Assembly (NCBI RefSeq): GCF_007741535.1
Contig: NZ_CP036525.1
Location: 3,100,001 to 3,164,000, forward strand
Reading direction: 5' to 3'
Source: Rubripirellula lacrimiformis
Lineage (GTDB): Bacteria > Planctomycetota > Planctomycetia > Pirellulales > Pirellulaceae
Length of the DNA: 64,000 bases
In this document: positions 26,292 through 40,893 of the stretch, piece after piece
How positions within the stretch are numbered: position 1 is the stretch's first letter
How the letters are laid out: every line of letters begins with the position of its first letter
Made by a program: the position numbers and the translations under genes
The notes under the pieces: generated by a model
Databases searched by the model: none
Seen by the model: only the letters and a program-made list of their open reading frames with translations
What the model was told of the DNA's origin: nothing

Positions 26292-29291
26292 TTAGTCTGT
26301 GCCGTTGATCTTCAAGTCCGAAAAGACGGCGTGCGTATTGACGACACGCAAACCCACTGTGCCGGATGCGTAGGTGTCGTCGGTGACCGATAGGCAATGA
26401 CGCCCGTTGTGGGCGACGGTGATCTGGTCACCGATCATCTGGACACGAAGGTTCTGGTGCTTCGCGACATCGATGGGCGATCTCGCTCGAGCGATTTCGG
26501 TCCATGAGGTTCCGTTGGTCTTTCCAACCACGACCAAACCGGTCGCTGGAATGATGCCCGCAAAGTAGCCTCGCTGTGCATCGAACCCGACGGACGGGCC
26601 AGTACATCGAAACAGGATTCCAGCATCGCGTGCATCCGCGTTGCCATTGAAATCGATGGTAGCGTCGGCGATGAAGTCATCCGGGCATGGGGAATCGAGG
26701 ACGATCTTTTCGCCGCTGGGGTAATGATTCACAGGGGCCCCAGTGACCACCCCCAGGTGCAGCCCATCGTCTTTTCGATCGACGGATTGGTGGTGAGCAT
26801 AATACGACCAATCGGAATCGGTATCCTGATCGCCGAACAGGCGGATGGGCAACGTTGCTTGACGCACATGTTCACCCGACGGGCGTTGCGTTGGCTTGCC
26901 AGCGCGGATCGGTTTGCCCAGCAACGGAAAACCTTTTTTGCCAACTGACATCGGTTGCACATAGATGGCACGACGCCAACCCGGTTTGCGATCTCGTTTG
27001 GCGTGGAAGATATGCCACCACTGTTTGCCGTCGATGGACTTCACAAAGCAAGAATGCCCCACGCCGAACACATCGTGTGTGCCTTGGAAAACGGGCCTGG
27101 GCCGTTTGTGCCAGGCGTCTGGATCCAAGGGGTCTTCGCCCGTCAATTCCAGAATCCCAAGCTTGTATGTCGGCAACCACGACGCACCGCAGGAGTACGT
27201 CACGAAGGTCTTGCCCTTCGCCTGGAACACTTGCGGGGCTTCGTTCAATCCGCGTCCCGCGTCGCCGTTCTCGGTCAGTTCCCACGGATGGTCGCTATTG
27301 TTGGTTAATCGGATTCGCGGACCAGCAAGCTTAGTGGGGGATTCCATTGGGGCGATGTACAGGTACTGTTGGTCTGATCCCGGGACGTCCCAACCTGACC
27401 AAATTGCAAATCGCTTGTCTTTGATTGTCAGTACCGTCATGTCGATGGCCCAAGTGTTGGGCGACATGCCATCGTCGCCGTCGCCGGTTGCCAGTGGTCC
27501 GTGCAGTGTGTATTGGCCCAATGGATCCTCGGTCAGTGACTCTAGGACGTAGGCCAAATGGTTGGCGTTGTCGCCATCCGAAGCCGCGAAATAGACATAC
27601 CAACGACCGTCCATGAAATGCAGTTCGGGGGCCCACACCTGCGCTGAAACAGGCCCCAATTGGGGCGCTGTCCATACCGTGTGTGGTTTTCCTAGCGACG
27701 TCAGCCGATCGCTACTGTGGATCGAGATCGCTTGATTGCCATGGGAAGTGCACCACAGGTATCGAGGTTGGTTTGGATCGCGAATCACCCATGGGTCGGC
27801 GCCTTCACCGATTGGGTTGATGAACAGGTCCGGTGAAATCGATCCGACGTCTTGTGGATCTTGCAGGCGGGGATCGCCGGCATCTGCGGGCATCGCCGCG
27901 TTCCAGGCGATCAACGATTGATGCAGACGTTGGGCGACCTGTGGTCGTTGGTCCGCCAGATTCTTGACTTCGGACGGATCGGCCACCAATTCGTAGAGTT
28001 GTGGTTCGCTATCGTCGTAGTTGACTAAGTATTTCCACTTCCCGTCACGAACGGCCAAGTCTGGGTTGTCCGCTTCGCTGGTTCCTGGACGGTCGGGTGG
28101 TCGACGCCAAAAAATCGGATCATTGCGGCTCTGTGTGGTTTTGCCCAGCAAGGTTTCGGACAAATCTTCGCCGTCAAAGACAACCGATTCGGGGACTGGT
28201 GTCCCGGTGATGGAATACAGGGATCGATTCACATCCATCGCGCACAACACGGATTGATCGTTGGTCGTGCCCGCAACTTCATCCGCCAATAAGCCCGGTC
28301 CCCATACGATCAGCGGTGATCGTACGCCGCCTTCGTACAACCATGTCTTGGCGCCACGCAGCGGATCCGAAGAACCGGCCCCCTCTTCGTGTCCATTGTC
28401 GGACATCACAAGAATCAATGTATTGTCACGCAACTTTTCGTCGTTTCGAATTCGATCGAACAGCTTCGCCAGTTGTTGGTCCATGGCGTCCAGCACCGCG
28501 AAATACAACGCTCGTTTGGAACCATCGGTTTCATCCCGCAGAACTTCGGGTGGAAAGAATGGCGAATGGACATCGTCGGGCCAAACGTTGACGAAAAACG
28601 GCTTGTTTTGGCCGGCCGCTTCGTTGATGAACCCGATCGCGTCGTCGACGAAGGTGGCGGTGACCACGGATCGGTCTTGCCATTGGATCGGCCCCCGTCC
28701 TAGGTCTCCTGATCCAAGGTCGTGTTTTTGCGGTGGCTTGCCATCGAAGGCATCTTTCAGGGGCAAGACTCGTGGTCCCAGTCCTTCGAAATTCGTCAAG
28801 CTTCGATCGAATCCGTACTCGGTGATCAGGGGTGCTTCGCCCACATCACGCTGGCCGCCCATGTGCCATTTTCCAAAGTGACCGGTCGCGTATCCGGATT
28901 GTTGAAGGCGGCCGGCCAACATCGGCGCCTTCAAGTCCAACCACTGTGCCATTCCCCGTTCACGATTCAGTTTTCGGGACGCTAGATACGAACTGATCTT
29001 CCAACGTTGCGGATACTGTCCGGTCGACAGGGCGACTCGCGATGGCGAACAGATGGGCGAGTTGACGTAAAAGTTTGAAAAACGCAATCCTTCCGCGGCC
29101 AACGCATCCACATTCTCGGTGGTCGTGCGGGTTCCGCCGAAACACGACAGATCCGACCAACCCATGTCGTCGATAAACACCGTGACGACATTCGGGCGTT
29201 TGTCGGCAAAAGAAACATTGGTTGCCGCAGTGAAGCACAAGCCCACCAGCAAAGCCAAAAGCAAGCTAGGGGCAGCAGTGATTCGACTCAT
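26292..29291 (-). CDS. Secreted sulfatase fused to GH43-like and C-terminal beta modules
   Basis: 999 residues, about twice a normal sulfatase. The signal peptide ends near residue 29. Sulfatase domain (about 32-480): metal residues in VFIDDMGWSD, the formylglycine site CSPSRVALSTGQ (Cys about 81), KWHMGG, and MSDNGHEEG. From about 495 a five-bladed GH43-like module begins, with candidate catalytic residues in GADPWVIRDP, AIDMTVLTI and NEAPQVFQAKG. Residues about 800-999 form a concanavalin-like module (DARDAGILFRCTG; GLRVVNTHAVFSDLKING). It could desulfate and cleave the same glycan, for example algal sulfated polysaccharide; that is inference. FGE-type maturation of the Cys would be needed. 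No frameshift is seen at the domain joints. Confidence 0.88.
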   Translation of the reverse strand: MSRITAAPSLLLALLVGLCFTAATNVSFADKRPNVVTVFIDDMGWSDLSCFGGTRTTTENVDALAAEGLRFSNFYVNSPICSPSRVALSTGQYPQRWKISSYLASRKLNRERGMAQWLDLKAPMLAGRLQQSGYATGHFGKWHMGGQRDVGEAPLITEYGFDRSLTNFEGLGPRVLPLKDAFDGKPPQKHDLGSGDLGRGPIQWQDRSVVTATFVDDAIGFINEAAGQNKPFFVNVWPDDVHSPFFPPEVLRDETDGSKRALYFAVLDAMDQQLAKLFDRIRNDEKLRDNTLILVMSDNGHEEGAGSSDPLRGAKTWLYEGGVRSPLIVWGPGLLADEVAGTTNDQSVLCAMDVNRSLYSITGTPVPESVVFDGEDLSETLLGKTTQSRNDPIFWRRPPDRPGTSEADNPDLAVRDGKWKYLVNYDDSEPQLYELVADPSEVKNLADQRPQVAQRLHQSLIAWNAAMPADAGDPRLQDPQDVGSISPDLFINPIGEGADPWVIRDPNQPRYLWCTSHGNQAISIHSSDRLTSLGKPHTVWTAPQLGPVSAQVWAPELHFMDGRWYVYFAASDGDNANHLAYVLESLTEDPLGQYTLHGPLATGDGDDGMSPNTWAIDMTVLTIKDKRFAIWSGWDVPGSDQQYLYIAPMESPTKLAGPRIRLTNNSDHPWELTENGDAGRGLNEAPQVFQAKGKTFVTYSCGASWLPTYKLGILELTGEDPLDPDAWHKRPRPVFQGTHDVFGVGHSCFVKSIDGKQWWHIFHAKRDRKPGWRRAIYVQPMSVGKKGFPLLGKPIRAGKPTQRPSGEHVRQATLPIRLFGDQDTDSDWSYYAHHQSVDRKDDGLHLGVVTGAPVNHYPSGEKIVLDSPCPDDFIADATIDFNGNADARDAGILFRCTGPSVGFDAQRGYFAGIIPATGLVVVGKTNGTSWTEIARARSPIDVAKHQNLRVQMIGDQITVAHNGRHCLSVTDDTYASGTVGLRVVNTHAVFSDLKINGTD

Positions 29292-29827
29292 TTTGGGAAT
29301 CCTGATCCGATGAATGGTGTCGCAGTCGGCTTAGTCGCAGACTGCGATGATGGAGGGCCATCGATCAATCTAGACGATGGCTTTCAGATCACAATGAGAG
29401 TCGCGTTCCGGTCTCTGAGATAGCTTGTCGTCTAGGCCGGAAAACCGGGTGGCTCGGCGGGGGCAAAGTGTGACGGCGGCTGAAGCAGCCAATGGCCCTG
29501 CGGTCGTGCCCGCAGTCCCCATGCCATCGGTTCGGGATTGCAGGCGCTGCGAGTCGTCCGATCCCATCGTGGACGCCAGCGACCATTGACGCCAGTTCAG
29601 GCCGCGAGGGGTTCCTTCACACGAAATTCATGTTCGGTGTCGGCCGTCGCCAGGCTCGCATTTTTCGGCTGCCGAGGTTGGGCGCCGTGACGTCGACCTG
29701 TTGCACCCGATGTGGATCAAGGGGATGATGTTTCGCTAGACTGGAATCATCGCAAAACCTTTTCGTGATCCGATGGAACCTGCGACGCATTGCCAAGGTG
29801 CGACGAGAGGTTGAGTTCGGCCAAACT
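29292..29827. other. Divergent promoter region before the GAK-type operon
   Basis: 536 bp between the sulfatase start (-) and the first Nudix start (+). It should carry promoters for both. Short frames here are incompatible with one another and lack coding features. I could not assign a -10/-35 pair or an operator. Confidence 0.4.
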
Positions 29828-30313
29828 ATGAATGATCAGATCGCGGATTTTTGTCCGCAGAAACGCAACGCTGTTCGGGCCGTGATCCTGCGAGACAACA
29901 TGTTGCTGGTGCAACGAAAGGTCAACCGCGGCGGCAATGTTCGCCTCACCTTGCCCGGTGGTGGTTCGAAAACTGGCGAAACGTTGCAGCAAAGTTTGCA
30001 TCGAGAATGCAAAGAAGAAATCGGCGCTGATATCGAAGTGCATCGTCTGATGCATGTGGCCGACTATTTTAAGAAACGCCGCACGAATCCGCCCACGGTG
30101 CGGCACCAAATTGAATTTGTGTTTCGTTGTTCGGTCTCCGATACGTACATCGCATCCAATGGGATTCGGCCTGACAAGAATCAGCAAGATGTTCTGTGGT
30201 TGGACCTCGATAGCCAAATGGTGGATCTGCTGTGGCCCGATTCTTGGCAACGGATTTTGCAGGACGATTTTGCCAAGGCTCCCGTTTACCTTGGTTTGAT
30301 TGATTCACGCTGA
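29828..30313 (+). CDS. Nudix hydrolase (first gene of GAK-type operon)
   Basis: 161 residues from the ATG at 29828; a GTG at 29765 would add 21 residues without domain support. The complete Nudix box GGSKTGETLQQSLHRECKEE-IG fits Gx5Ex7REUxEExGU, preceded by VRAVILRDNMLLVQRK and LTLPGG. Nudix enzymes split nucleoside-diphosphate-linked compounds, with Mg2+ bound by the Glu residues. No specificity motif tells the substrate. Its TGA shares one base with the ATG of the next gene (TGATG), so the two are probably translationally coupled. Confidence 0.88.
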   Translation: MNDQIADFCPQKRNAVRAVILRDNMLLVQRKVNRGGNVRLTLPGGGSKTGETLQQSLHRECKEEIGADIEVHRLMHVADYFKKRRTNPPTVRHQIEFVFRCSVSDTYIASNGIRPDKNQQDVLWLDLDSQMVDLLWPDSWQRILQDDFAKAPVYLGLIDSR

Positions 30314-31935
30314 TGCGTCTTTCCCAACCTATCCGCGACAACTTGCAATTCCTGCTGGCAGAGACCAGCACGCAATTGAATAGCCTTGTCGACTTGCTGG
30401 CCAATCCATCGGCCGATCTGACTCAGCGTATGCTCGATCGCCGCGGCTACTCGTACAATCTGAAGATGCGCATTCATGATGCTTGTGCCAATGAACTTCG
30501 CATGACGGATTCGGCAGCGGATCTGGAAACCTATTCCCTACGCGCCGCCGAATCGATCGCAACACAGCTTGATCGTCTAACCGCACTGATCAACGACTGC
30601 GCACGGCAATTGAGCGGTCGGAAACGACGGGGGATTCTAAGGACGCTTTCATCGACCGGATTGTTGGAAGATGTCCAGAAAGGAATCGAATTGATCCGGT
30701 TTGGGATCGAAGAGGATGGTACCAAGACGGCGCTAAAGGTCAGTGATCTGGCGAATTTAATGTCGACCAAGCATTCGTCTTTCTTCGAAGGCCAGTCACG
30801 CGAACTGGAAAGCATCGAACATCCGGATCGTGTTCTGTGCGCTTTCTTCATTGCGACGCAGTTGAACGAGATGAGTGCGGTGTTGCGGGAAGTGAGCGAG
30901 TCGTTGGTGGGAGCCCGGTTGGGGCGTCCGTTGCAGATGGATCGATATCGATTGCTGCAGACGGCGTGTGATGACCTGGGCATCGACGAAGCCACCGTCG
31001 CCAAGGCTGCTGAAACCAATTCCGGTACGAACATTTCGCGGATCGGTTGCGGAACTGGCGAAGGCTTTGACGCCATCATCAAGGATGGAGCCAAGGGGAA
31101 GTTGAAAGAGGAACAGCGGAGTGTCAAAAACTGGCACGAGATCTACCCGGGCTTGGCTCCGCAGATATTGTCGTTCCGAAAGCGCGGCCAGAACGCGTCG
31201 TTGGCGATCGAACACCTACCGGGTGTGACTTTCGATCAGATGCTGATCTCTGGCACTAGCGAACAATTGCGGTCGAACCTGCAACACCTTGCCAAGACCC
31301 TGAGATCGGTTTGGCGAGAAACAAAGTCGGACGAACAGGTGCCGTCGTTCCACATGGCACAACTGCGAAAGCGATTGGATAGCGTCCTGGAAATTCACCC
31401 CGAATTCGGGCGTGGCGGAGGGCGCATCGGACGGACAAAGATTCACTCGCTGTTGGATTTGATCGAAATGGCAGAAGAAAAAGAGGTTTCGATCACTCCA
31501 CCGTTTTCGGTCTACATCCACGGCGATTTCAATCTGGACAACATCATTTTTGATCCTGCCACCGAGCGGATCAATTTTATCGATCTGCATCGATCGCGAT
31601 ATTCCGATTACACACAGGACGTATCCGTGTTCATGGTGTCGGGGTACCGGTTGCAGGCGTTGGACAAACAAACGCGTCGCCGAGTCGCGGACGTGGCAGA
31701 GTACGTCCATGCCAAGGCACAGAAGTTCGCACGCCAGCAAGGAGATCGAACCTTTGAAATGCGACTGGCCTATGGGTTGGCCAGATCGTTCATCACGTCG
31801 ACGCGGTTCATCTTGGACAAGTCACTGGCCAAGGCGATGTGTCAGCGCGGCTGCTATATCCTGCAGCGGACGATCGACCAACCAGTCGAATCCGCGGCCG
31901 ATTTTCGATTGCCGATACGTGAGCTTTTCTCGTGA
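30313..31935 (+). CDS. PhoU-like helical domain fused to APH-type kinase
   Basis: 540 residues. The first 230 are almost entirely helical with two PhoU-like repeats (ETYSLRAAESIATQLDRL; IATQLNEMSAVLREVSESL), a fold tied to phosphate signalling. From about 235 the chain changes to an aminoglycoside-phosphotransferase/choline-kinase-like fold: SRIGCGTGEGFDAIIKDG as N-lobe, SLAIEHLPGVTFDQML hinge, catalytic loop IHGDFNLDNIIFD (about 402-414) and metal-binding INFIDLHRSRYSDY. Asp and Asn of the catalytic loop are intact, so small-molecule kinase activity is expected. The combination is unusual. The gene overlaps its downstream neighbour by GTGA. Confidence 0.8.
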   Translation: MRLSQPIRDNLQFLLAETSTQLNSLVDLLANPSADLTQRMLDRRGYSYNLKMRIHDACANELRMTDSAADLETYSLRAAESIATQLDRLTALINDCARQLSGRKRRGILRTLSSTGLLEDVQKGIELIRFGIEEDGTKTALKVSDLANLMSTKHSSFFEGQSRELESIEHPDRVLCAFFIATQLNEMSAVLREVSESLVGARLGRPLQMDRYRLLQTACDDLGIDEATVAKAAETNSGTNISRIGCGTGEGFDAIIKDGAKGKLKEEQRSVKNWHEIYPGLAPQILSFRKRGQNASLAIEHLPGVTFDQMLISGTSEQLRSNLQHLAKTLRSVWRETKSDEQVPSFHMAQLRKRLDSVLEIHPEFGRGGGRIGRTKIHSLLDLIEMAEEKEVSITPPFSVYIHGDFNLDNIIFDPATERINFIDLHRSRYSDYTQDVSVFMVSGYRLQALDKQTRRRVADVAEYVHAKAQKFARQQGDRTFEMRLAYGLARSFITSTRFILDKSLAKAMCQRGCYILQRTIDQPVESAADFRLPIRELFS

Positions 31936-32834
31936 ATGAACTACGAATCGGCGTTGTCGGTATTCCGGGAAAATGGTCAACCGAGGTGTTGGCCGACGCA
32001 TTGCAGAAACGTACCGGATTCCGGCTAGTCGTCAGCATGGCGGATGTTTGCGCGGATCTGGCATCCGGTAAGTTGATGGCCGGCGGTGTCGATTTGTGTG
32101 GTTTGGATGGACTGATCGTGAAAAAGATCAGTCAGCAGTATTCGCCTGCGACTCTCGATCGGATCGAACTGTTGCGACTGGCCGAGTATGCCGGGGTTCG
32201 CGTTTTTTCGCGTACCGAGACCATCATCCGAATGATCGACCGACTCGGTTGCACCATGACCCTGCGCGGTGGCGGCATCCCTATGCCGGAAACCGTTGTG
32301 ACCGAAAGCCGAGTCGAGGCGATGCAGGCGATCCGCCGCTTCGGTACCGCCGTTCTGAAACCGCTGTATTCGACGAAAGCACGCGGGATGGAATTGATTG
32401 ATGGATCCTTGGCCGATTCGGATTTGTTGGATTCGATCGATCGTTTCCAAGCAACCAATCCGATGATGTATATCCAGCAGAAAGTGGACCTGCCTGGCCA
32501 AGATCTCGGGATGGTCTTTTTGGGCGGAAAGTATTTGGGTACCTACGCGCGTGTCAGCCAAGGTCAAGCTTGGAACACAACGATTCAAAGTGGTGGTCGA
32601 TACGCCGCCCACGATCCGCCCACCAGCACCATTGAATTGGCGACGAGAGCCCAAGCACTTTTTGGGATGGATTTTACAACGGTGGACGTGGCAGATACCA
32701 AGGATGGCCCGATCGTTTTTGAAGTGTCGGCTTTTGGAGGATTCCGCGGTGTTCACGAGGGGATGCAGATGGATGCATCGGGCCTGTACGCTGACTACGT
32801 GATCGGAGAGTTCAACGCATGCAAAGATTGCTAG
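31932..32834 (+). CDS. ATP-grasp enzyme, GAK-system type
   Basis: 300 residues from a GTG at 31932 that overlaps the previous stop by 4 bp. It shows a RimK-like ATP-grasp order: an N-terminal Rossmann part (IGVVGIPGKWSTEVLADAL), the central GIPMPETVVTES, the lysine/Gly loop AVLKPLYSTKARGMELI, MYIQQKVDLPGQDLGMVFLG, and the C-terminal metal site VFEVSAFGGFRGV. In RimK the last motif is usually ExN; here it reads ExS. Such enzymes join a carboxylate to an amine or thiol via an acyl phosphate. Followed by an HprK-related kinase and later an amphi-Trp protein, it fits the grasp enzyme of the GAK system (TIGR04356-like, from memory). Confidence 0.85.
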   Translation: MNELRIGVVGIPGKWSTEVLADALQKRTGFRLVVSMADVCADLASGKLMAGGVDLCGLDGLIVKKISQQYSPATLDRIELLRLAEYAGVRVFSRTETIIRMIDRLGCTMTLRGGGIPMPETVVTESRVEAMQAIRRFGTAVLKPLYSTKARGMELIDGSLADSDLLDSIDRFQATNPMMYIQQKVDLPGQDLGMVFLGGKYLGTYARVSQGQAWNTTIQSGGRYAAHDPPTSTIELATRAQALFGMDFTTVDVADTKDGPIVFEVSAFGGFRGVHEGMQMDASGLYADYVIGEFNACKDC

Positions 32835-33985
32835 AGATCGCGGACCGGATGATGGACGGTGCCGTCATGGACCAACCGTCCGTCGTCTTGGATCTAGATG
32901 GTTTTCGTTTAGAAGTCCGATCCAATTCGCGACAATTGCTTGATCGATTGCGTGATTACTTTGCCCACGCAGTGGTAGTCGGCGGAGGCGAAGTGGTGCT
33001 TTATGCTATCGAGGGTCCATCAACGGACTTGGGTTTTGCGTACCAGCATTGGCGCCGCGAACCCGGAAAGTCTGGGCGTAAAGATGCGTATCTGGACTTG
33101 GTTTCAGCGGATTCGGTCGGGCCAGAGACAACGGGAGATGGCAATTCGAATCGCAGACCTTCGATCGGCCGTTTGGTGTTGAAGGTGCGGACGGGAATGC
33201 TGTTTTTGCAGAGTGATTCCCACCGGATCGTCCGTGGCGGTTGTGTGCTGAACGACAATCAGGTCATCAATTTTGTCAATTGCCAATTGATGAATCGGCT
33301 ACAACTCCGCGGCGCGGTGATCTGCCACGCATCGGCGATTGTGCTTGGGCAGCGGGCTCTGGCGATCGCAGGCTTTTCGGGCGGTGGAAAATCGTCGTTG
33401 ATGCTTCGAATGTTGACGGAACCGGGAACGAAGTTTTTGACCAACGATCGGTTGTTCCTAGAGCCGGATTCCAGCGGTGGTGTATGCGCCATCGGAGTGC
33501 CGAAATTGCCTCGCATCAATCCCGGCACGATCCTTAGTCTCCCCACGCTAAGCCCCATCCTGGATCAGGCCCAACGTGATCAGTTCGCAGCGCTGCCGGC
33601 GGATCAATTATGGGACCTGGAACAAAAGTACGACGTCGACATCACGGGGCTGTTCGGTGCGGACCGAATTGCGTCCCGATCGCCTATGACGGATCTGTTG
33701 GTACTCAATTGGCGTCGGGATTCGCAGTCCGATTGTCAGATCCAGCGGGTCGATCTGCATCAGCGTCCCGAATTGCTAGAGGCGATTATCAAGTCGCCGG
33801 GGCCGTTCTATTCGGATCGCGACGGTGTTTTCCAAACCGATGACAAAAGGATCGACTTGGATCCCTATATCGATCTGCTCGATCGCGTCAACGTTTGGGA
33901 AGCGAGCGGCAGAGTTGATTTTGCATTGGCAGCTGACAAATTTCGATCGATTCTGGAAGCAGATCTGTGCACAAAGACCTCCTGA
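32819..33985 (+). CDS. HprK-related kinase B, GAK-system type
   Basis: 388 residues, starting 16 bp inside the ATP-grasp gene. The N-terminal 180 residues are mixed alpha/beta with no clear motif (LDGFRLEVRSNSRQLLDRL). The C-terminal part is HprK-like: a P-loop AGFSGGGKSSLMLRML (about 187-202) followed by KFLTNDRLFLE, where HPr kinases place a catalytic Asp, then GVPKLPRINPGTIL. HPr kinase phosphorylates a serine on a carrier protein; this relative probably phosphorylates a different, unknown acceptor. Known family name HprK-related kinase B (TIGR04355) is from memory. It overlaps the next gene by 19 bp, so tight co-expression is expected. Confidence 0.85.
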   Translation: MQRLLEIADRMMDGAVMDQPSVVLDLDGFRLEVRSNSRQLLDRLRDYFAHAVVVGGGEVVLYAIEGPSTDLGFAYQHWRREPGKSGRKDAYLDLVSADSVGPETTGDGNSNRRPSIGRLVLKVRTGMLFLQSDSHRIVRGGCVLNDNQVINFVNCQLMNRLQLRGAVICHASAIVLGQRALAIAGFSGGGKSSLMLRMLTEPGTKFLTNDRLFLEPDSSGGVCAIGVPKLPRINPGTILSLPTLSPILDQAQRDQFAALPADQLWDLEQKYDVDITGLFGADRIASRSPMTDLLVLNWRRDSQSDCQIQRVDLHQRPELLEAIIKSPGPFYSDRDGVFQTDDKRIDLDPYIDLLDRVNVWEASGRVDFALAADKFRSILEADLCTKTS

Positions 33986-34959
33986 TCCTATTCCATCCGG
34001 ATCCGCCGGACCAGGATTCAGTGGAACCGTCATCGGTAGATCCCGCTGATTCGAGTAAACGCAACGCGCAGCGGTTCGGTGTCTGGATGGCTCGTCAGGA
34101 ACTGGTGCCGCAACAGGTGATTTGCGATGCTCGTTTGTCGTCGCGAACGATTGCCGAAAAGTCTAGCAAGTCCGTCGGTTTGGACGCGCAGATTGTTCGC
34201 GAAGAAGCAATGTTCGCACAGGGTGACGAAGGGGCACCACGCGGCGTTCTGTCAAAATTAGATTCCGACACTCAGTGCGCTCTGCTGGTGATGCCAAGGG
34301 CTACCGCGATCGATTTGGCTGGCTACGTGTGCGGGAGCGATGCTGGTTCGATACAAGAATCGATCGGGTCAGGCACGGATGTTTTGCTGCACCTGATGTT
34401 GGGCAATGGTTGGGGCGAAGCGGTGGCAGGTGGTGGTGATTGGGTACAAGCCGTCGATGCGGTGACGCTTCCGAAAAAATTTCCCTTTCCTGGGGTGGAT
34501 GGTCCGCAGCGGCGGGCGCGGCCCGCGTACTACTATCGTCAATCGGCCGTGATCCCGTTTCGCGTTCGTGATGGGAAACCCGAGGTGCTGGTTGTTTCGA
34601 CTAGCAAACGAAAGCGATGGGGGGTTCCGAAAGGTATCCATGAGCCTGGCAGAACGGCGCAGGAATCCGCAGCGAACGAAGCCTTCGAAGAAGCCGGTGT
34701 GCGAGGAAACGTGCTTGATTTCGAAATGGGGCACTACGTTTACGCCAAGTGGGGTGCCACCTGCGAAGTACATGTGTTTCCGATGCAGGTGACCGAAGTG
34801 CTGGATCCGAGCGAATGGGCGGAAAGCCATCGAGGCCGAGAATGGTTGTCCCCAGCTGCGGCGGCCGACCGAGTCCACCAAGACGAATTGAAGGCGATGA
34901 TCCGGCGCCTGCCTGAACGGATCGCCCGATCGATGGACGATGGGGACAACGATGGTTGA
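33967..34959 (+). CDS. Degenerate SixA-like domain fused to DIPP-type Nudix hydrolase
   Basis: 330 residues from a GTG at 33967. Residues 1-150 follow the layout of SixA phosphohistidine phosphatase: LLILFHPDPP where RHG is expected, RFGVWMARQELVPQQVICDARLSS, LVMPRATAIDLAGYVCG where a second His is usual. Both catalytic histidine positions appear replaced, so this half is probably a binding or structural domain. Residues about 190-325 are a Nudix domain (VIPFRVRDGKPEVLVVS, WGVPKGIHEPGRTAQESAA, NEAFEEAGVRG) closest in look to diphosphoinositol-polyphosphate phosphohydrolases. It overlaps the HprK-related gene by 19 bp and the next gene by 8 bp. Confidence 0.8.
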   Translation: MHKDLLILFHPDPPDQDSVEPSSVDPADSSKRNAQRFGVWMARQELVPQQVICDARLSSRTIAEKSSKSVGLDAQIVREEAMFAQGDEGAPRGVLSKLDSDTQCALLVMPRATAIDLAGYVCGSDAGSIQESIGSGTDVLLHLMLGNGWGEAVAGGGDWVQAVDAVTLPKKFPFPGVDGPQRRARPAYYYRQSAVIPFRVRDGKPEVLVVSTSKRKRWGVPKGIHEPGRTAQESAANEAFEEAGVRGNVLDFEMGHYVYAKWGATCEVHVFPMQVTEVLDPSEWAESHRGREWLSPAAAADRVHQDELKAMIRRLPERIARSMDDGDNDG

Positions 34960-35635
34960 TCGCATTTGCATCCTGATTCGGCATGGTGACTATCACCAGT
35001 TGGCGGACGCGCCGAGCGCGCACCAACCCTTTCGGTTGACCGATCTTGGGCGCCGGCAAGCGATGGACGCAGCGGAGCGAGTGCGCCAGATGGCTGATCA
35101 ACATGGTTGGTCGCTTGCCGCCGAAATCCATAGCTCGTCGCTGCTTCGTGCTTGGGAAACCGCTCAGATCGCAATGCAGGGATTGCCGGATTGTCAGCGA
35201 ATCGTCGAAACCGACCGCCTGGCAGAACGTTGCGTTGGAAACGTTGCCAACTTGAATAAATCAGAGATCGCGATCGCGGTGGATCAGGACCCGCGTCTTG
35301 ACCCGCTGCCGCCGAACTGGAAATCCGATAGTCACTTTCGCCTTCCGTTCCTGGGCGCTGAATCGCTGATGGAATCGGGCCGCCGAGTGGCGGATTACCT
35401 GAGCGAAACGATGGCCAGGGTGGTGACGCCTGGTGAGGCTATTCTGTTTTTTGGTCACGGTGCATCGCTGCGTCATGCGGCGCACCTGCTTGGCGTGCTT
35501 TCCTTCGAACGCATTTCCAAACTCAGCATGCACCACGCAGTGCCGATCGCATTTTCGGTTTCCAGCGACGGCCTATGGCAACAGGTTGCTGGGGATTGGA
35601 AACATCGTTCGACACAATCCCAGCGGATGGATTGA
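34952..35635 (+). CDS. Histidine phosphatase superfamily protein
   Basis: 227 residues from the ATG at 34952; another ATG at 34940 would add four residues. Catalytic RHG box ILIRHGDYHQ at the N-terminus, LTDLGRRQA, the arginine-bearing SSLLRAWETAQI, and the second catalytic histidine in LFFGHGASLRHAAHLLGV. All four catalytic pocket elements are present, so unlike the SixA-like half of its upstream neighbour this copy should be active. Substrates of the family range from phosphohistidine proteins to small phosphates. It lies 10 bp before the metallophosphoesterase gene. Confidence 0.88.
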   Translation: MVDRICILIRHGDYHQLADAPSAHQPFRLTDLGRRQAMDAAERVRQMADQHGWSLAAEIHSSSLLRAWETAQIAMQGLPDCQRIVETDRLAERCVGNVANLNKSEIAIAVDQDPRLDPLPPNWKSDSHFRLPFLGAESLMESGRRVADYLSETMARVVTPGEAILFFGHGASLRHAAHLLGVLSFERISKLSMHHAVPIAFSVSSDGLWQQVAGDWKHRSTQSQRMD

Positions 35636-35645
35636 GACTCGCAAT

Positions 35646-37016
35646 ATGTCAAGCAATTCCAAACACATCGACGCTGGTCCCCGCTATCAGGGGCAGAAAT
35701 GGATCGGGGTGGATCTGCCGAAAACCGTCTGTGACTGGTCCGTTGGTGGTGAACAATCCATCGTGACCGACGGAGACGATCACGGTGAATTCATCCGATT
35801 GCTGAGCAAGCTGAACAAACAGAATCGGTGGCGTTGGCCTAAACGCGAGCATCATTTCATTTCGGACTTGCACGCAGACCCCGACGCGTTTGCGGCATCG
35901 TTGGTCGCGTCGGGAAGCGTCAAGCAAACCGGACCCTGCTGTCGCGATTTCCGGTTGACCAAGGCGGGTGGCAACGCCACGTTTGTGATCGGAGGCGACT
36001 GTTTCGACAAAGGACCAAGCAATCTTGAACTGCTGCGTTGCGTACGTCAGATCAAAGACCAGGGTGCGCGAATGCGGATCCTTGCTGGAAATCATGACAT
36101 CCGATTGCTGTTCGGGATGCGAGTGGTCGGGGAACGGAAAGATGTGCGGAACGAGCATTTCTTCATTCGTTCGGGCCAGAAGATTATTCCGTTGATTCAA
36201 GAGGTTTGGGCGACCTACCTTTCCGATCGAAAGCTGAAATCCCTTCCCAATCTTTCGACCTGCCGATCACGGTTGTTTCCTCGGCAATCTTGGTTCGACG
36301 ATTTTCCGAAGATTTGTGAAGACGCCGTTGTTCCATCCCAAGTGGATCGCGAAATAAGCCGGATCGCAAAGAAGGCTGATCGTTTTGAAGCACTTTGCGG
36401 CCAACAAGGACTCGATCTTCGGCAGGTTTACGCGGCGACCCGGCAATGGAAGAAGTTGTTTCTGAAAAAGTCAGGAGAGTTCTACTGGTTCTATCGCAAT
36501 CTGCGTCTGTGTTACCAAAGTGGATCGTTGCTGTTTGTTCATGCCGGCGTCGACGATACCGTGGCAGAGATGCTGTGGAAGCACGGTGCTGGGCGGCTGA
36601 ACGATGATTTCCGTCTAGCGATGGCCGGGGATCCGTTTGATTCGTACTATGGTCCGCTTTGCAATTCAATTCGCACAAAGTATCGCGATGTGGATCGCCC
36701 CTTTACCGCCAAGGGGGCGAAGCACATGCATCGCGCCGGGATCACTGCAATCCTGCACGGGCATCGCAATCTGCATCATGGTCAACGACTATCGCTGCGT
36801 GAATCACAGATCAACTTCGAATGCGATACGAGCTTGGATAGCCATACACGGCGCGTGGAGAATGTGGGTGGGCGCGGTGCTTCGGTCACGATTGTTCAAC
36901 CGCGCGGCCGCATACTAGGGGTCAGTTCGGACTTTCCTCAGATCAAAGTCTTCGAGCCTGTTCGAACGCTCGCCACGCTGCGGGCCAACATCAAACACGA
37001 AGGAAGTAAACGATGA
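35646..37016 (+). CDS. PPP-like metallophosphoesterase
   Basis: 456 residues from the ATG at 35646; the longer open frame overlaps the phosphatase gene in another frame. Calcineurin-type motifs are complete: FISDLHADPDAF, VIGGDCFDKGPSN, ILAGNHDIRLLF, FVHAGVDD and ILHGHRNLHHG. The GDxxDKG plus GNHD pattern is typical of the PPP protein-phosphatase branch, but the chain is longer than bacterial PrpA/PrpB and has a helical insertion of about 150 residues (about 190-300). It may reverse a phosphorylation made by one of the operon kinases; this is inference. Its stop overlaps the start of the amphi-Trp gene by ATGA. Confidence 0.85.
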   Translation: MSSNSKHIDAGPRYQGQKWIGVDLPKTVCDWSVGGEQSIVTDGDDHGEFIRLLSKLNKQNRWRWPKREHHFISDLHADPDAFAASLVASGSVKQTGPCCRDFRLTKAGGNATFVIGGDCFDKGPSNLELLRCVRQIKDQGARMRILAGNHDIRLLFGMRVVGERKDVRNEHFFIRSGQKIIPLIQEVWATYLSDRKLKSLPNLSTCRSRLFPRQSWFDDFPKICEDAVVPSQVDREISRIAKKADRFEALCGQQGLDLRQVYAATRQWKKLFLKKSGEFYWFYRNLRLCYQSGSLLFVHAGVDDTVAEMLWKHGAGRLNDDFRLAMAGDPFDSYYGPLCNSIRTKYRDVDRPFTAKGAKHMHRAGITAILHGHRNLHHGQRLSLRESQINFECDTSLDSHTRRVENVGGRGASVTIVQPRGRILGVSSDFPQIKVFEPVRTLATLRANIKHEGSKR

Positions 37017-37282
37017 AACAGAGCACTCGATTTCGGCATGAATCGTTGCAAGATTCAGAGTCCGTGCAAACGTTGCTGGGCGCGTTGGTTGACGGAGTAT
37101 CCAAAGGCAAAATTGTCTTGGAAGACGAAGATGGCACGATGGTGATGAAACCCAAGGGGCTGGCGAACCTGAAGATTTCGGCATCTCAAGATGACAAGAA
37201 AAACCGACTGTACATACGGCTGACTTGGTACGAAGACACCGACCCGGTCCGCCAGAAAGACATCAAGATTTCAGCCAAGTGA
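37013..37282 (+). CDS. Amphi-Trp domain protein
   Basis: 89 residues, last gene of the operon, coupled to the phosphoesterase gene by an ATGA overlap. It has an N-terminal helix (TRFRHESLQDSESVQTLL), a short hairpin (KGKIVLEDEDG) and two amphipathic strands ending in LYIRLTWYE, the pattern named amphi-Trp. Known instances are small stand-alone proteins beside HprK-related kinases and ATP-grasp genes. It lacks enzymatic motifs and is a good candidate for the carrier or acceptor of modification, but no specific serine or lysine can be singled out. Confidence 0.85.
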   Translation: MKQSTRFRHESLQDSESVQTLLGALVDGVSKGKIVLEDEDGTMVMKPKGLANLKISASQDDKKNRLYIRLTWYEDTDPVRQKDIKISAK

Positions 37283-37450: not shown

Positions 37451-38689
37451 CTAGAATGCCTCGTCGATGACTTCTTTCGAGTTGCGGGTACCGAGCGATC
37501 CCCACAATCCGTATGGACTTGCACTGCCGCCTGGCAGGAAAGGTCCACGAGTTTGCACCGGTTGGATCGTTTGGTCTCCCGAATCAATGCTTTCCGTAAT
37601 GAACCTCACCGCCCCATCACCCATCAAGACATGGCAACCACCTTGGTGGCGACTTCCCGCAGAGAAGAAGCCTTCGGAGTTGTCATTGCTACGTGAGCAG
37701 GTGATGCCATTGGGAGGCAGGATCGTTTGGAATCCGCTGTAGTTCATGCGTCCATCGGCCCAGCGGTTCGCACGTGCCTGAACCGTTACCGTCGGATTCG
37801 CAAACGAAGGTCGCAGCGGATCGATGTAAGCTGGATCGATGCAATCGGCCGGTGCGGCCTCGGAACCACCACCGAATGAAAGTGTCGTTCGCACAACGAC
37901 TTCCTTCAGGTCACGGCCACCGCTATCGCTGACGATTTCGCCCATCGCAATCGTATTGGATAGTCCGTCCAAGACATCGCGGAAAGCAAGTTGTTGTCGA
38001 GCCCAAAAGAAACCACGATTGGCGGCTCGTGATCGCTCGACAAGCCAGTTGTAGTTGGTTGGGCCGCGTCCGTTGAAGTTCGCGTGGGTCGGGTTGTTTT
38101 GGTTGCTGACGTATCCGCCTTCGTTTCGGCCGCCGTTGTTGACCGTGTTCGAAGCGTCGCCAAAACAGGCAGCGTAGTTGATTCGTCCACCGCCGGGAGG
38201 CCCAAACGCGGGGTCGCTGGGGCAACGAAGGCCGGGCAACTCGGTCGCCCAGGGCTTGTAGTCAAATCGCCAAGGACACGGGCCCATCGGAGGCCAAGTG
38301 TTATTGATCCCAGCCGGGTTGCCGCCGCTAACGGTCTCCGTGCTGGGGTTCGAAATGGCTTCCCACATCCCTTGCTGTTCCATGAACGGCAAGATCCCGA
38401 CGGCATAGCTGAGATACCAGCGGTTGCTGTTGTTGCTGGCGTCAGTGACCGATCGGGTGGTCCCCATCATCGTCATCGGCGACTTGTTGAACGCTGAATG
38501 GTAGTTGTGCATTGCCAAGCCGATTTGCTTGAAGTTGTTGCCGCACGACATCCGTCTAGCGGCTTCACGCGCTGCCTGAACCGCGGGCAGCAATAGCCCG
38601 ACCAGGACACCAATGATGGCGATTACCACCAATAGCTCCACAAGCGTAAACCCACCATGACTGTGGCTTCGCGTTGTTTGAACCGTCAT
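37451..38689 (-). CDS. DUF1559 pseudopilin-like protein (copy A)
   Basis: 412 residues. A prepilin-type N-terminus [20 protein letters not shown] gives a peptidase cleavage site before Phe and a single hydrophobic helix. The following [17 protein letters not shown] is the hallmark of planctomycete DUF1559 proteins, as is the C-terminal [17 protein letters not shown]. These occur in many copies per genome and probably assemble into or associate with type IV pilus-like or secretion structures. Function is undetermined. It is nearly the same as the protein encoded at 39446-40687, so recent duplication is likely. It has its own terminator and a 5' region with paired palindromes. Confidence 0.92.
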   Translation of the reverse strand: MTVQTTRSHSHGGFTLVELLVVIAIIGVLVGLLLPAVQAAREAARRMSCGNNFKQIGLAMHNYHSAFNKSPMTMMGTTRSVTDASNNSNRWYLSYAVGILPFMEQQGMWEAISNPSTETVSGGNPAGINNTWPPMGPCPWRFDYKPWATELPGLRCPSDPAFGPPGGGRINYAACFGDASNTVNNGGRNEGGYVSNQNNPTHANFNGRGPTNYNWLVERSRAANRGFFWARQQLAFRDVLDGLSNTIAMGEIVSDSGGRDLKEVVVRTTLSFGGGSEAAPADCIDPAYIDPLRPSFANPTVTVQARANRWADGRMNYSGFQTILPPNGITCSRSNDNSEGFFSAGSRHQGGCHVLMGDGAVRFITESIDSGDQTIQPVQTRGPFLPGGSASPYGLWGSLGTRNSKEVIDEAF

Positions 38690-39445: not shown

Positions 39446-40687
39446 CTAGAATGCCTCGTCGATGACTTCTTTCGAGTTACGGGTACCGAGCGATCCCCAC
39501 AAACCGTATGGACTTGCACTGCCGCCTGGCAGGAACGGTCCACGAGTTTGCACCGGTTGGATCGTTTGGTCTCCGGTGTCGATGCTGTCCGTGATGAACT
39601 TCACCGCTCCGTCACCCATCAAGACATGGCAACCACCTTGGTGGCGACTTCCAGCGGAGAAGAATCCTTCGGAGTTGTCATTGCTGCGTGTGCAGGTGAT
39701 GCCGTTGGGAGGCAGGATCGTTTGGAATCCGCTGTAGTTCATGCGTCCATCGGCCCAGCGGTTTGCACGCGACTGGATGGTTGCCGTCGAACTTGCGAAC
39801 TGTGGTCGCAAAGGATCAATGAAAGTTGGGTCCTTGCAGTCGGCTGGGGAAGCTTCGGATCCGCCACCAAACTGAAGCGATGTTCGCAGAACAACTTCCT
39901 TCAATTCGCGGCCACCACTGTCGCTGACGATTTCGCCCATGGCGATTGTGTTGGACAGACCGTCCAAGACGTCGCGGAAACCCAACTGTTGGCGAGCCCA
40001 GAAGAAACCACGGTTGGCTGCACGTGATCGCTCGACAAGCCAGTTGTAGTTGGTTGGACCGCGACCGGAGAAGTCGGCGTGGGTCGCGTTGTTCTGATTG
40101 CTGACGTTGCCGCCTTCGTTTCGGCCACCGTTGTTGACCGTGTTCGACGCGTCGCCAAAGCAAGCGGCGTAGTTGATTCGTCCGCCACCGGGAGGTCCGA
40201 ATGCTGGGTCACTGGGGCAGCGATAGCCGGGCAACTCGGTCGCCCAAGGCTTGTATTCGAAGATCCAAGGGCAGGGGCCCATCGGAGGCCAGACGCCGGC
40301 TGTGGCTGGAGGGTTGCCGCCGCTGACGGTTTCCATGCTGGGGTTCGAAATCGCTTCCCACATGCCTTGTTGCTCCAGGAACGGCAGAATGCCGACGGAA
40401 TAACTGAGGTACCAGCGGTTGCTGTCATTGGAGGAATTCGTGAATGTCTTTGTGGTTCCTCCCATCGTGATCGGCGTCTTGTTGAAAGCCGAGTGGTAGT
40501 TGTGCAGCGCCAAGCCGATTTGCTTGAAGTTGTTGCTGCACGACATGCGTCTTGCGGCTTCACGGGCGGCCTGAACGGCGGGCAACAATAGCCCCACCAG
40601 CACGCCGATGATGGCGATCACCACCAAAAGCTCGACAAGGGTAAAACCACCACGCTTGCGATGGTTGTGGACTGCATGAACGGTCAT
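39446..40687 (-). CDS. DUF1559 pseudopilin-like protein (copy B)
   Basis: 413 residues from the ATG at 40687; five further codons are open upstream. It has the same prepilin segment [20 protein letters not shown] and the [17 protein letters not shown] block as copy A, and the two agree almost residue for residue along their length, including the C-terminal [11 protein letters not shown]. Differences cluster in the short leader and in the regions around residues 60-130 and 290-310. Starts of the two copies are 1998 bp apart. Role in pilus-like or secretion structures is inferred from the N-terminus. Confidence 0.92.
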
Positions 40688-40893
40688 AGACGAAAGCCTC
40701 AAAAAAGAAAAAGAAAGTAGGTCGTCGGTAATCCGACAAAAATGTCGTATTTCCGACTGCCTGAGGCTACCCCCTCACACAAGGATGGTCAAGGGGATAA
40801 AAGGCGACATTGCGGTAGATGCAACGGAGTCTTCGAGAACGCATCGGGTAATTTTCGAAATTCCGAGAAAATCACCGGTCCTTATTGAGATAT
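40688..40893. promoter_or_regulatory. Copy B 5' region with two GTCGnnnnnCCGAC palindromes
   Basis: Two 14-bp sites, GTCGGTAATCCGAC (40724-40737) and GTCGTATTTCCGAC (40744-40757), stand 20 bp apart, about two helical turns, upstream of the start. The more distant part (about 40850-40893; AAAATCACCGGTCCTTATTGAG) resembles the matching part of copy A. The layout suits cooperative binding of a dimeric regulator. Confidence 0.5.

What the first reader, a model, noticed from the sequence alone, without database searches (positions are those of the whole stretch)
29828..37282. Eight-gene GAK-type operon expanded with phosphate-handling enzymes
Seen: eight genes in one direction with six overlapping junctions, one 10-bp gap and almost no non-coding DNA, encoding Nudix, PhoU-like/APH-like kinase, ATP-grasp, HprK-related kinase, SixA-like/Nudix, histidine phosphatase, PPP-like phosphoesterase and amphi-Trp. 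Known (from memory): ATP-grasp, HprK-related kinase B and amphi-Trp genes were defined as a GAK system of unknown function, often with CofD-related and XXXCH genes, which are absent here. Inference: a modification cycle in which one product is built by ATP-grasp, phosphorylated by one or two kinases, and cleared by up to four hydrolases.
Basis: partly seen in the sequence, partly recalled or inferred. Interest (0 to 1): 0.9.

Follow-up and report, generated by a model that had tools for sequence, protein, structure and literature searches.

The report
GAK operon linked to phosphate storage
This is a compact run of eight bacterial genes for kinases, a ligase and phosphate-removing enzymes of unknown purpose, and comparison with its relatives in other bacteria suggests that it helps cells manage stored phosphate, which gives this unexplained gene family a testable role.

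Summary
Eight same-strand genes, six overlaps and one 10-bp gap lie at 29828-37282, and the three GAK marker families score far above their cut-offs. "Expanded" is misleading. Among 57 full-flank loci (window included), kinase P, ATP-grasp G, HprK-like K and amphi-Trp W occur in 57, phosphoesterase M in 55, His-phosphatase H in 54, SixA-Nudix S in 48, Nudix N in 35; 34 carry all eight. So P, H and M belong to the core, N and S are optional. A GAK CofD-like gene often lies divergently upstream, but the window genome lacks it.

New lead: the system looks phosphate/polyphosphate-linked. (1) P carries a PhoU fold. (2) CHAD, PPK, PPX, Pit, DUF47, PstS, PhoU or CYTH genes flank 16 of 96 GAK loci against 1 of 60 control regions (families picked post hoc). 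(3) Pho-box-like repeats precede the operon in some Pseudomonadota: 8 of 65 against 7 of 566; CTGTCAT was the best of 420 permuted motifs (shuffles). The window itself shows neither neighbour nor Pho box. Substrate and reaction are unknown; the build-and-clear cycle is plausible but unshown.

The parts
29828..30313 (+). N: Nudix hydrolase, 161 aa, canonical MutT-type Nudix box; optional part of the system
   Evidence: PF00293 59.1 bits; Nudix box largely conserved in 52 aligned sequences; present in 35 of 57 full-flank loci. A longer GTG start at 29765 is possible.
30313..31935 (+). P: PhoU-like helical domain fused to an APH/choline-kinase-like kinase, 540 aa; core
   Evidence: PF01636 34.0 and PF02958 31.1 bits; profile match to PhoU 1xwm E 9.1e-7 over profile positions 21-198; model pLDDT 77.7, pTM 0.49 matches PhoU 4q25 (TM 0.82 by target) and, weaker, choline kinase and APH; HGDFNxDN invariant and IDLHRS nearly so in A2; 57 of 57.
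31932..32834 (+). G: GAK ATP-grasp enzyme, RimK/MptN-like ligase, 300 aa; core
   Evidence: TIGR04356 437.8 bits, cut-off 300; next MptN 127.4 bits, below its cut-off of 350; 57 of 57.
32819..33985 (+). K: HprK-related kinase B, 388 aa; core
   Evidence: TIGR04355 307.6 bits, cut-off 200; invariant CHA, AGxSGxGKS and NDRL motifs in 34 aligned proteins.
33967..34959 (+). S: SixA-like N-terminal half (catalytic motif lost here) plus PKG-type Nudix C-terminal half, 330 aa; optional part
   Evidence: PF00293 38.0 bits over residues 192-309; SixA half by alignment: most relatives read RHG and GHNP, window, L031 and L032 do not; 48 of 57.
34940..35635 (+). H: histidine phosphatase (branch 1), RHG and GHG intact, 231 aa; core or near-core
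   Evidence: PF00300 70.2 bits; motifs conserved in 70 rows; 54 of 57.
35646..37016 (+). M: PPP/calcineurin-type metallophosphoesterase, 456 aa, metal motifs intact; core
   Evidence: PF00149 28.4 bits, cut-off 21.5 (with 71 extra residues upstream); conserved D.HaD, GGDC.DKG, LAGNHD, HAG and HGH; 55 of 57.
37013..37282 (+). W: amphi-Trp small protein, 89 aa; core
   Evidence: TIGR04354 61.8 bits; PF20068 29.8 bits; model of one helix plus four strands, pLDDT 86.3; FRHESLQ largely conserved.

Best explanation
The operon is a GAK system, and the GAK system is a phosphate-responsive module tied to polyphosphate or phosphate storage. Inferred working: PhoU-kinase P reads the phosphate state through its PhoU domain and phosphorylates a hydroxyl-bearing small molecule (its kinase half resembles choline kinase and APH). 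ATP-grasp G joins an amino acid to a carboxylate of that product. HprK-like K adds a second phosphate to the product or to the small protein W. Nudix, histidine-phosphatase and PPP-type enzymes (N, S, H, M) clear or reset it. The product or W would then tune polyphosphate build-up, breakdown or granule handling. Shown: gene content, intact motifs (except the SixA half of S), the PhoU fold, the conserved core P-G-K-(H)-M-W, phosphate/polyP neighbours in a minority of related loci, and Pho-box-like sites upstream in some Pseudomonadota. Inferred: that the function is phosphate storage, every substrate, and the order of steps.
For: PhoU domain in P: profile E 9.1e-7 to 1xwm, fold match TM 0.82 by target to 4q25. 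Neighbours: over 96 GAK loci with 951 kb of flank, loci with CHAD 11, PstS 6, Pit 4, DUF47 4, CYTH 4, PPK1 3, PPX 1, PPK2 1, PhoU 1; over 60 control regions (1,194 kb) from GAK-bearing genomes, CHAD 1 and the rest 0; any of these 16 of 96 against 1 of 60, Fisher p 0.002. All 11 CHAD and all 3 PPK1 loci, and representatives of the other families, were checked by Pfam. L102 holds Pit, DUF47, PPK1, PPX, SixA, CofD, the whole operon, CHAD and ParA in a row. CHAD domains bind polyP and are often found in polyP gene clusters (PMC6537752, passages seen). In R. rubra the genome's only CHAD gene is the one next to this operon. Pho-box-like repeats: at least 11 of 14 matches in 8 of 65 upstream regions against 7 of 566 controls (Fisher p 3e-5), best of 420 permuted motifs; 8 of 68 against a mean of 0.62 and a maximum of 4 in 200 dinucleotide shuffles. 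CTGTCAT as E. coli Pho box motif: PMC4415409 (passage). Four new loci: 2 hold polyP genes (CHAD+ParA in L220, PPK2 in L224).
Against: 80 of 96 GAK loci showed no such neighbour. The families were chosen after looking at GAK neighbourhoods and the seeds come from GAK loci, so the counts of 1 (PPX, PPK2, PhoU) are the seeds themselves and the contrast with the controls is post hoc; several PstS hits are weak (75-106 bits). CHAD alone: 11 of 96 against 1 of 60, Fisher p 0.02, and related loci are not independent. Control regions come from only eight genomes. The window has neither signal: its nearest checked flanking genes are a sulfatase/GH43 protein and a DUF1559 protein, the genome's one CHAD gene is about 230 kb from the window's left edge, and its best Pho-box score is 9 of 14. 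CHAD is not enriched genome-wide with GAK: 8 of 14 GAK genomes against 193 of 398 in all (counted by hand). 57 of 65 upstream regions score under 11; the three new upstream regions scored 8, 9 and 8; at K identity under 50% only 2 of 16 reach 11. No enzyme has been assayed.
Confidence: 0.5

Rival explanations
1. GAK is a cofactor-like biosynthetic pathway after the logic of F420: kinases make a phospho-hydroxy-acid, the CofD-like protein moves it onto an acceptor, and the MptN/CofF-like ATP-grasp enzyme adds an amino acid; the hydrolases are housekeeping.
For: G is closest to MptN (127 bits) among named relatives and also hits RimK, LysX and CofF. CofD_rel_GAK, over its cut-off in the two proteins checked, clusters with GAK in 31 loci, in 26 of them on the strand opposite to K, and is over cut-off in 9 of 26 GAK genomes searched. 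The F420 pathway itself is recalled.
Against: CofD has no match in the genomes of the window and of R. rubra, nor in 16 of 26 GAK genomes in all at E 1e-20, so it is not required. It does not explain PhoU, CHAD, PPK or the Pho-box-like sites.
Confidence: 0.2
2. The system makes and removes a pyrophosphate-bearing signal such as a dinucleoside polyphosphate or an analogue of inositol pyrophosphates.
For: The clearing set (two Nudix domains, histidine phosphatase, PPP-type enzyme) resembles enzymes that cut such bonds (recalled). In a Mariprofundus MAG (L086 = L141) an ApaH gene (NF001204 287.8 bits, cut-off 176) stands directly upstream of P with a 12-bp gap where N is missing; ApaH also lies near M in L137 and L138. 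S has a PKG-type Nudix box (likeness to DIPP/ApnA hydrolases recalled).
Against: The ATP-grasp match is to amide ligases; no inositol kinase turned up, though none was sought as such. ApaH occurs in 3 of 96 loci only, one of them the seed.
Confidence: 0.15
3. W is a ribosomal substrate: G ligates an amino acid to it and K phosphorylates it, as in modified-peptide systems.
For: W is small, present in 57 of 57 full-flank loci by a permissive search, and has a largely conserved FRHESLQ stretch.
Against: W is predicted as a compact helix plus four strands (pLDDT 86) and its C-terminus is not conserved, unlike known C-terminally ligated carriers (recalled).
Confidence: 0.08
4. A defence island or other conflict system.
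For: Sporadic spread (4 of 392 sampled Planctomycetota, the window's genome among them) and plasmid copies in Rhodobacterales.
Against: PADLOC: one weak hit for N (PDC-S07, 37.2 bits), none for the other seven. No relative confirmed in viral contigs. Catalytic cores of P and K are strongly conserved.
Confidence: 0.03

Closest known systems
GAK system (NCBIfam TIGR04354/04355/04356/04357)
   Same: All three marker families over cut-off; the CofD-like gene belongs to the same loci in many relatives.
   Different: The marker set omits P, H and M, which are as constant or nearly as constant as the markers, and the optional N and S; the window genome lacks the CofD-like gene.
PhoU / DUF47 phosphate regulators
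   Same: The N-terminal half of P has the PhoU fold.
   Different: Fused to an APH-like kinase; the phosphate-gene seeds found nothing in the 26 kb of window searched around the operon.
Polyphosphate gene clusters with CHAD, CYTH, PPK, PPX (PMC6537752, passages)
   Same: Phosphate/polyP genes flank 16 of 96 GAK loci; L102 is a full island.
   Different: None of the window's eight proteins matched a known polyP family in Pfam or NCBIfam; polyP genes are not adjacent in the window.
HPr kinase/phosphorylase and HprK-like peptide or serine kinases
   Same: P-loop and HprK-like motif order in K (comparison with HprK motifs recalled).
   Different: No Pfam family matched K at E 0.1 and no relevant solved structure was found by sequence; no HPr-like partner recognised.
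MptN / CofF / RimK amino-acid ligases
   Same: G matches MptN, RimK, LysX and CofF models.
   Different: All below their cut-offs; G has its own family.

Membership tests
GAK system | ATP-grasp of TIGR04356 over cut-off | tested here: met
   437.8 bits, cut-off 300
GAK system | HprK-related kinase B, TIGR04355 over cut-off | tested here: met
   307.6 bits, cut-off 200
GAK system | amphi-Trp protein, TIGR04354 over cut-off | tested here: met
   61.8 bits, cut-off 31
GAK system | GAK CofD-like protein (companion, not required) | tested here: not met
   No match in G000; matched in 10 of 26 GAK genomes at E 1e-20, 9 over cut-off
GAK system | XXXCH protein (companion) | tested here: inconclusive
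   0 of 8 genomes and no control rang
PhoU family | PhoU fold/profile in P | tested here: met
   Profile E 9.1e-7 to 1xwm, fold match to 4q25; the window protein alone does not reach PF01895
APH-like kinases | Catalytic HGDxNxDN motif and Pfam score | tested here: met
   PF01636 34.0 bits, cut-off 23.2; motif invariant in A2
SixA phosphohistidine phosphatases | Catalytic RHG motif in S | tested here: not met
   FHP in the window, SHP in L031 and L032; 65 of the 68 other rows keep R-H
Nudix hydrolases | Nudix domain over gathering score in N and S | tested here: met
   59.1 and 38.0 bits, cut-off 21.1
Pho regulon | Pho box upstream of the window operon | tested here: not met
   Best 9 of 14, E. 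coli-type motif; a Planctomycetota motif may differ
Pho regulon | Pho-box-like repeats upstream of related operons | tested here: met
   Enriched, in a minority of loci: 8 of 65 against 7 of 566; 8 of 68 against a mean of 0.62 shuffled
Polyphosphate enzymes | Activity on polyP | not testable with these tools
   Needs assays

The most novel reading that the evidence does not exclude
GAK is a bacterial phosphate-storage signalling system: a PhoU-controlled kinase, an HprK-like kinase and an amino-acid ligase make an undescribed phosphorylated, amino-acid-tagged signal, cleared by Nudix, histidine-phosphatase and PPP enzymes, that governs polyphosphate stores under PhoB control, a counterpart of eukaryotic inositol-pyrophosphate control of phosphate.
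Probability: 0.2. Interest if true: 0.92.

Novelty: new variant of a known kind. Interest (0 to 1): 0.72.

Why it matters
GAK families carry NCBI names but no function, and two searches of the held library for the family names and accessions found no paper about them. Redefining the core as P-G-K-(H)-M-W and tying it to PhoU, polyP genes and Pho-box-like promoters turns an orphan cassette into a concrete hypothesis: phosphate starvation should induce it, at least in the Pseudomonadota with Pho boxes, and its loss should change polyP. It occurs in many marine bacteria by record title (Thiodiazotropha and other symbionts, Magnetovibrio, Mariprofundus, Marinobacterium, Thalassospira, Rhodopirellula), for several of which phosphorus storage is known to matter (recalled).

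Tried and rejected
Defence: PADLOC gave only one weak hit, for N, and a viral-contig scan confirmed no relative. Rejected as a main reading.

Genome-wide CHAD enrichment with K: not seen (8 of 14 against 193 of 398). Only local clustering supports the link.

Class-level replication mostly returned loci already held: 6 of the 10 regions fetched have the contig lengths of earlier loci, so only 4 were treated as new.

Solved-structure searches for K and W by sequence found nothing useful.

One search kept 65 of 96 loci (K identity under 80% and 250 bp upstream needed); one search kept 68 of 99. One search separates 57 full-flank loci (at least 6.5 kb on each side of K, window included) from 41 truncated ones; L136 and L061 are both counted there, and without L136 the counts are P, G, K, W 56, M 54, H 53, S 47, N 34 of 56. 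In one search a gene counts if it lies within 9 kb of K, whatever the order. W there was called permissively (E 1e-3, no filters), so 57 of 57 may include a spurious hit (L143 is doubtful), and S in L068 may be a stand-alone SixA.
Full report
Observation. The trio scores far above the NCBIfam cut-offs: ATP-grasp 437.8 (300), HprK-related kinase B 307.6 (200), amphi-Trp 61.8 (31). Pfam supports Nudix in N and in the C-terminal half of S, APH in P, histidine phosphatase in H, metallophosphoesterase in M and amphi-Trp in W. I use the letters N P G K S H M W for the genes in order.

What the proteins are. P is a fusion: a profile of 29 P proteins matches solved PhoU (1xwm, E 9.1e-7, nearly full length) and, at the other end, aminoglycoside kinases. 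The AlphaFold model (mean pLDDT 77.7, pTM 0.49) gives PhoU 4q25 at TM 0.82 by target for the N-terminal half, and choline kinase and APH more weakly for the rest. The HGDFNxDN motif of P and the P-loop of K are invariant in the alignments of 29 and 34 proteins. H, M and N keep their metal or catalytic motifs. S is SixA plus Nudix in Pseudomonadota, but the window, R. rubra (L031) and R. sallentina (L032) have lost the SixA RHG, while 65 of the 68 other rows keep R-H. W is predicted as one helix and four strands (pLDDT 86.3) without a convincing fold match.

Do the eight travel together? A scan of one genome per species with the K alignment returned the 80 best loci, by record title mainly Alpha-, Gamma- and Zetaproteobacteria and two Rhodopirellula. 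In 57 loci with at least 6.5 kb on both sides of K (window and other fetched loci included), P, G, K and W are found within 9 kb in 57, M in 55, H in 54, S in 48, N in 35 and the CofD-like gene in 23; 34 of 57 hold all eight. That set leans towards close relatives. In an evenly drawn Pseudomonadota sample, 14 of 398 genomes have K over cut-off; among its 10 full-flank loci, P, G, K, M and W are in 10, H in 9, S in at most 5, and all eight genes in 2. Of 392 sampled Planctomycetota 4 carry K over cut-off, the window's genome among them; two others read H-M-W-W-P-G-K-CofD (L116) and M-W-W-P-G-K-CofD (L117, with H also detected), the third W-P-G-K-W (L115). So P, M and H belong to the core; N and S are optional; the window shows a common long form, not a special expansion.

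CofD-like gene. CofD_rel_GAK (TIGR04357, over cut-off in the two proteins checked) clusters with GAK in 31 loci, in 26 of them on the strand opposite to K, mostly just upstream of the operon. Of 26 GAK genomes searched, 10 have a match at E 1e-20, 9 over cut-off; in two of these (G633, G649) it lies elsewhere in the genome; the window genome and R. rubra have none.

Spread. Among 99 genomes of the window's kin, its own included, only its own has G over cut-off. In a tree of P+G+K+M from 58 loci the three Pirellulaceae form one clade (support 1.0) next to a group that is alphaproteobacterial by record title in 5 of 6 loci (0.979; joint clade 1.0), apart from the other two planctomycete loci in the tree. 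This suggests lateral gain; I did not test it against a species tree. Five Rhodobacterales plasmids carry K over 79-87% of its length; the three that I opened hold P-G-K-H-M-W, two of them with CofD and one of these also with N. No viral copy was confirmed.

Phosphate link 1: neighbours. With seeds taken from GAK loci, I searched 96 GAK loci (951 kb of flank) and 60 control regions (1,194 kb) from eight GAK-bearing genomes (controls fetched). GAK loci with: CHAD 11, ParA 9, PstS 6, CYTH 4, DUF47 4, Pit 4, PPK1 3, ApaH 3, PPX 1, PPK2 1, PhoU 1. Controls: CHAD 1, a weak ParA 1, the rest 0. All 11 CHAD and all 3 PPK1 loci and representatives of the others were checked by Pfam. Counting any of CHAD, CYTH, PPK1, PPX, PPK2, DUF47, Pit, PstS or PhoU by hand gives 16 of 96 loci against 1 of 60 (Fisher p 0.002; CHAD alone p 0.02). 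This is post hoc: the families were picked after seeing GAK neighbourhoods, each seed finds itself, and related loci are not independent. The clearest case is L102 (Thiotrichaceae): Pit, DUF47, PPK1, PPX, SixA, CofD, N-P-G-K-S-H-M-W, CHAD, ParA. In R. rubra and R. sallentina a CHAD gene stands just upstream of N, and in R. rubra it is the only CHAD gene of the genome. Two of four further loci also hold polyP genes. CHAD domains are polyP-binding modules that often sit in polyP gene clusters (PMC6537752, passages seen).

Phosphate link 2: promoters. The most conserved Pho box motif of E. coli is CTGTCAT (PMC4415409, passage). With two copies spaced by four bases, at least 11 of 14 matches occur in 8 of 65 dereplicated upstream regions against 7 of 566 upstream regions of other ORFs in the same loci (Fisher p 3e-5); of all 420 permutations of the seven letters the true one ranks first by count and by mean, with shifted versions of itself among the runners-up. 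Against 200 dinucleotide shuffles: 8 of 68 against a mean of 0.62 and a maximum of 4; between -130 and -18, 7 against 0.22 and a maximum of 2; the excess weakens with stricter dereplication (4 of 43, 2 of 16). Of the 18 regions with 10 or more matches, 13 have the site at -38 to -92. The 8 best come from Photobacterium (L080), Marinobacterium (L046), a Methylomonas MAG (L091), two Rhodobacterales plasmids (L214, L215), a Pseudomonadota MAG (L089) and two unnamed Pseudomonadota genomes (L145, L146).

Limits. The window has no adjacent polyP gene and no E. coli-type Pho box (9 of 14); its genome does have PPK1 and one CHAD gene about 230 kb from the window's left edge. CHAD is not enriched with GAK genome-wide. 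Most loci show neither signal. The phosphate reading is therefore an inference from relatives to the window.

Mechanism. The most economical reading is a phosphate-responsive modification cycle (see best explanation). F420-like biosynthesis, a pyrophosphate signal (supported by ApaH standing where N is missing in a Mariprofundus MAG) and modification of W remain open.

Literature. In the held library, searches for the GAK names returned no paper, and searches for the family accessions and short names only five unrelated papers that hold the string XXXCH. A wider search returned 110 papers, of which I saw the 15 listed, each there for 'ATP-grasp enzyme' alone. No paper held three of HPr kinase, ATP-grasp, PhoU and Nudix, and none held aminoglycoside phosphotransferase, PhoU and polyphosphate together. 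Listings (20 of 59 shown; 10 of 48 shown) had no title on this system. Subscription papers and preprints were not searched.

Noticed in passing
L086 5100-5978 (= L141 9729-10607); L137 5718-6539; L138 5733-6554: ApaH (Ap4A hydrolase) gene directly upstream of P, same strand with a 12-bp gap, where N is missing in a Mariprofundus MAG; ApaH near M on the other strand in two further loci.
   Followed up: partly
window 33967-34530 (S, N-terminal half); L031, L032: SixA domain of S has lost its catalytic RHG and GHN motifs in the three Pirellulaceae rows, while the Nudix half is kept: a likely pseudo-phosphatase fused to an active-looking Nudix.
   Followed up: partly
L213, L214, L215 (plasmids of Tritonibacter, Qingshengfaniella, Pseudooceanicola): GAK cassettes on Rhodobacterales plasmids, two of the three with the divergent CofD-like gene.
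   Followed up: partly
L043, L083, L097, L102, L104, L108, L110, L143, L144, L220: A CHAD gene paired with a ParA-like ATPase, side by side or overlapping, beside GAK loci; perhaps a polyP-granule positioning pair.
   Followed up: partly
L105 11335-13137, L074 3274-5085: CofD-like proteins of about 600 residues against about 400 elsewhere; in L074 the CofD domain starts at residue 210, so the extra stretch is N-terminal.
   Followed up: no
window 26292-29291 (-): One ORF joins a sulfatase domain, a GH43 domain and a 3-keto-disaccharide hydrolase domain.
   Followed up: no
window 37451-38689 and 39446-40702 (-): Two very similar proteins in tandem just downstream of the operon; the first is DUF1559 with a type IV pilin-like N-terminus, the second was judged by eye from its translation.
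   Followed up: no
L083 (record titled Halobacteria archaeon MAG): A bacterial-type GAK locus in a record labelled archaeal; probably a binning error.
   Followed up: no
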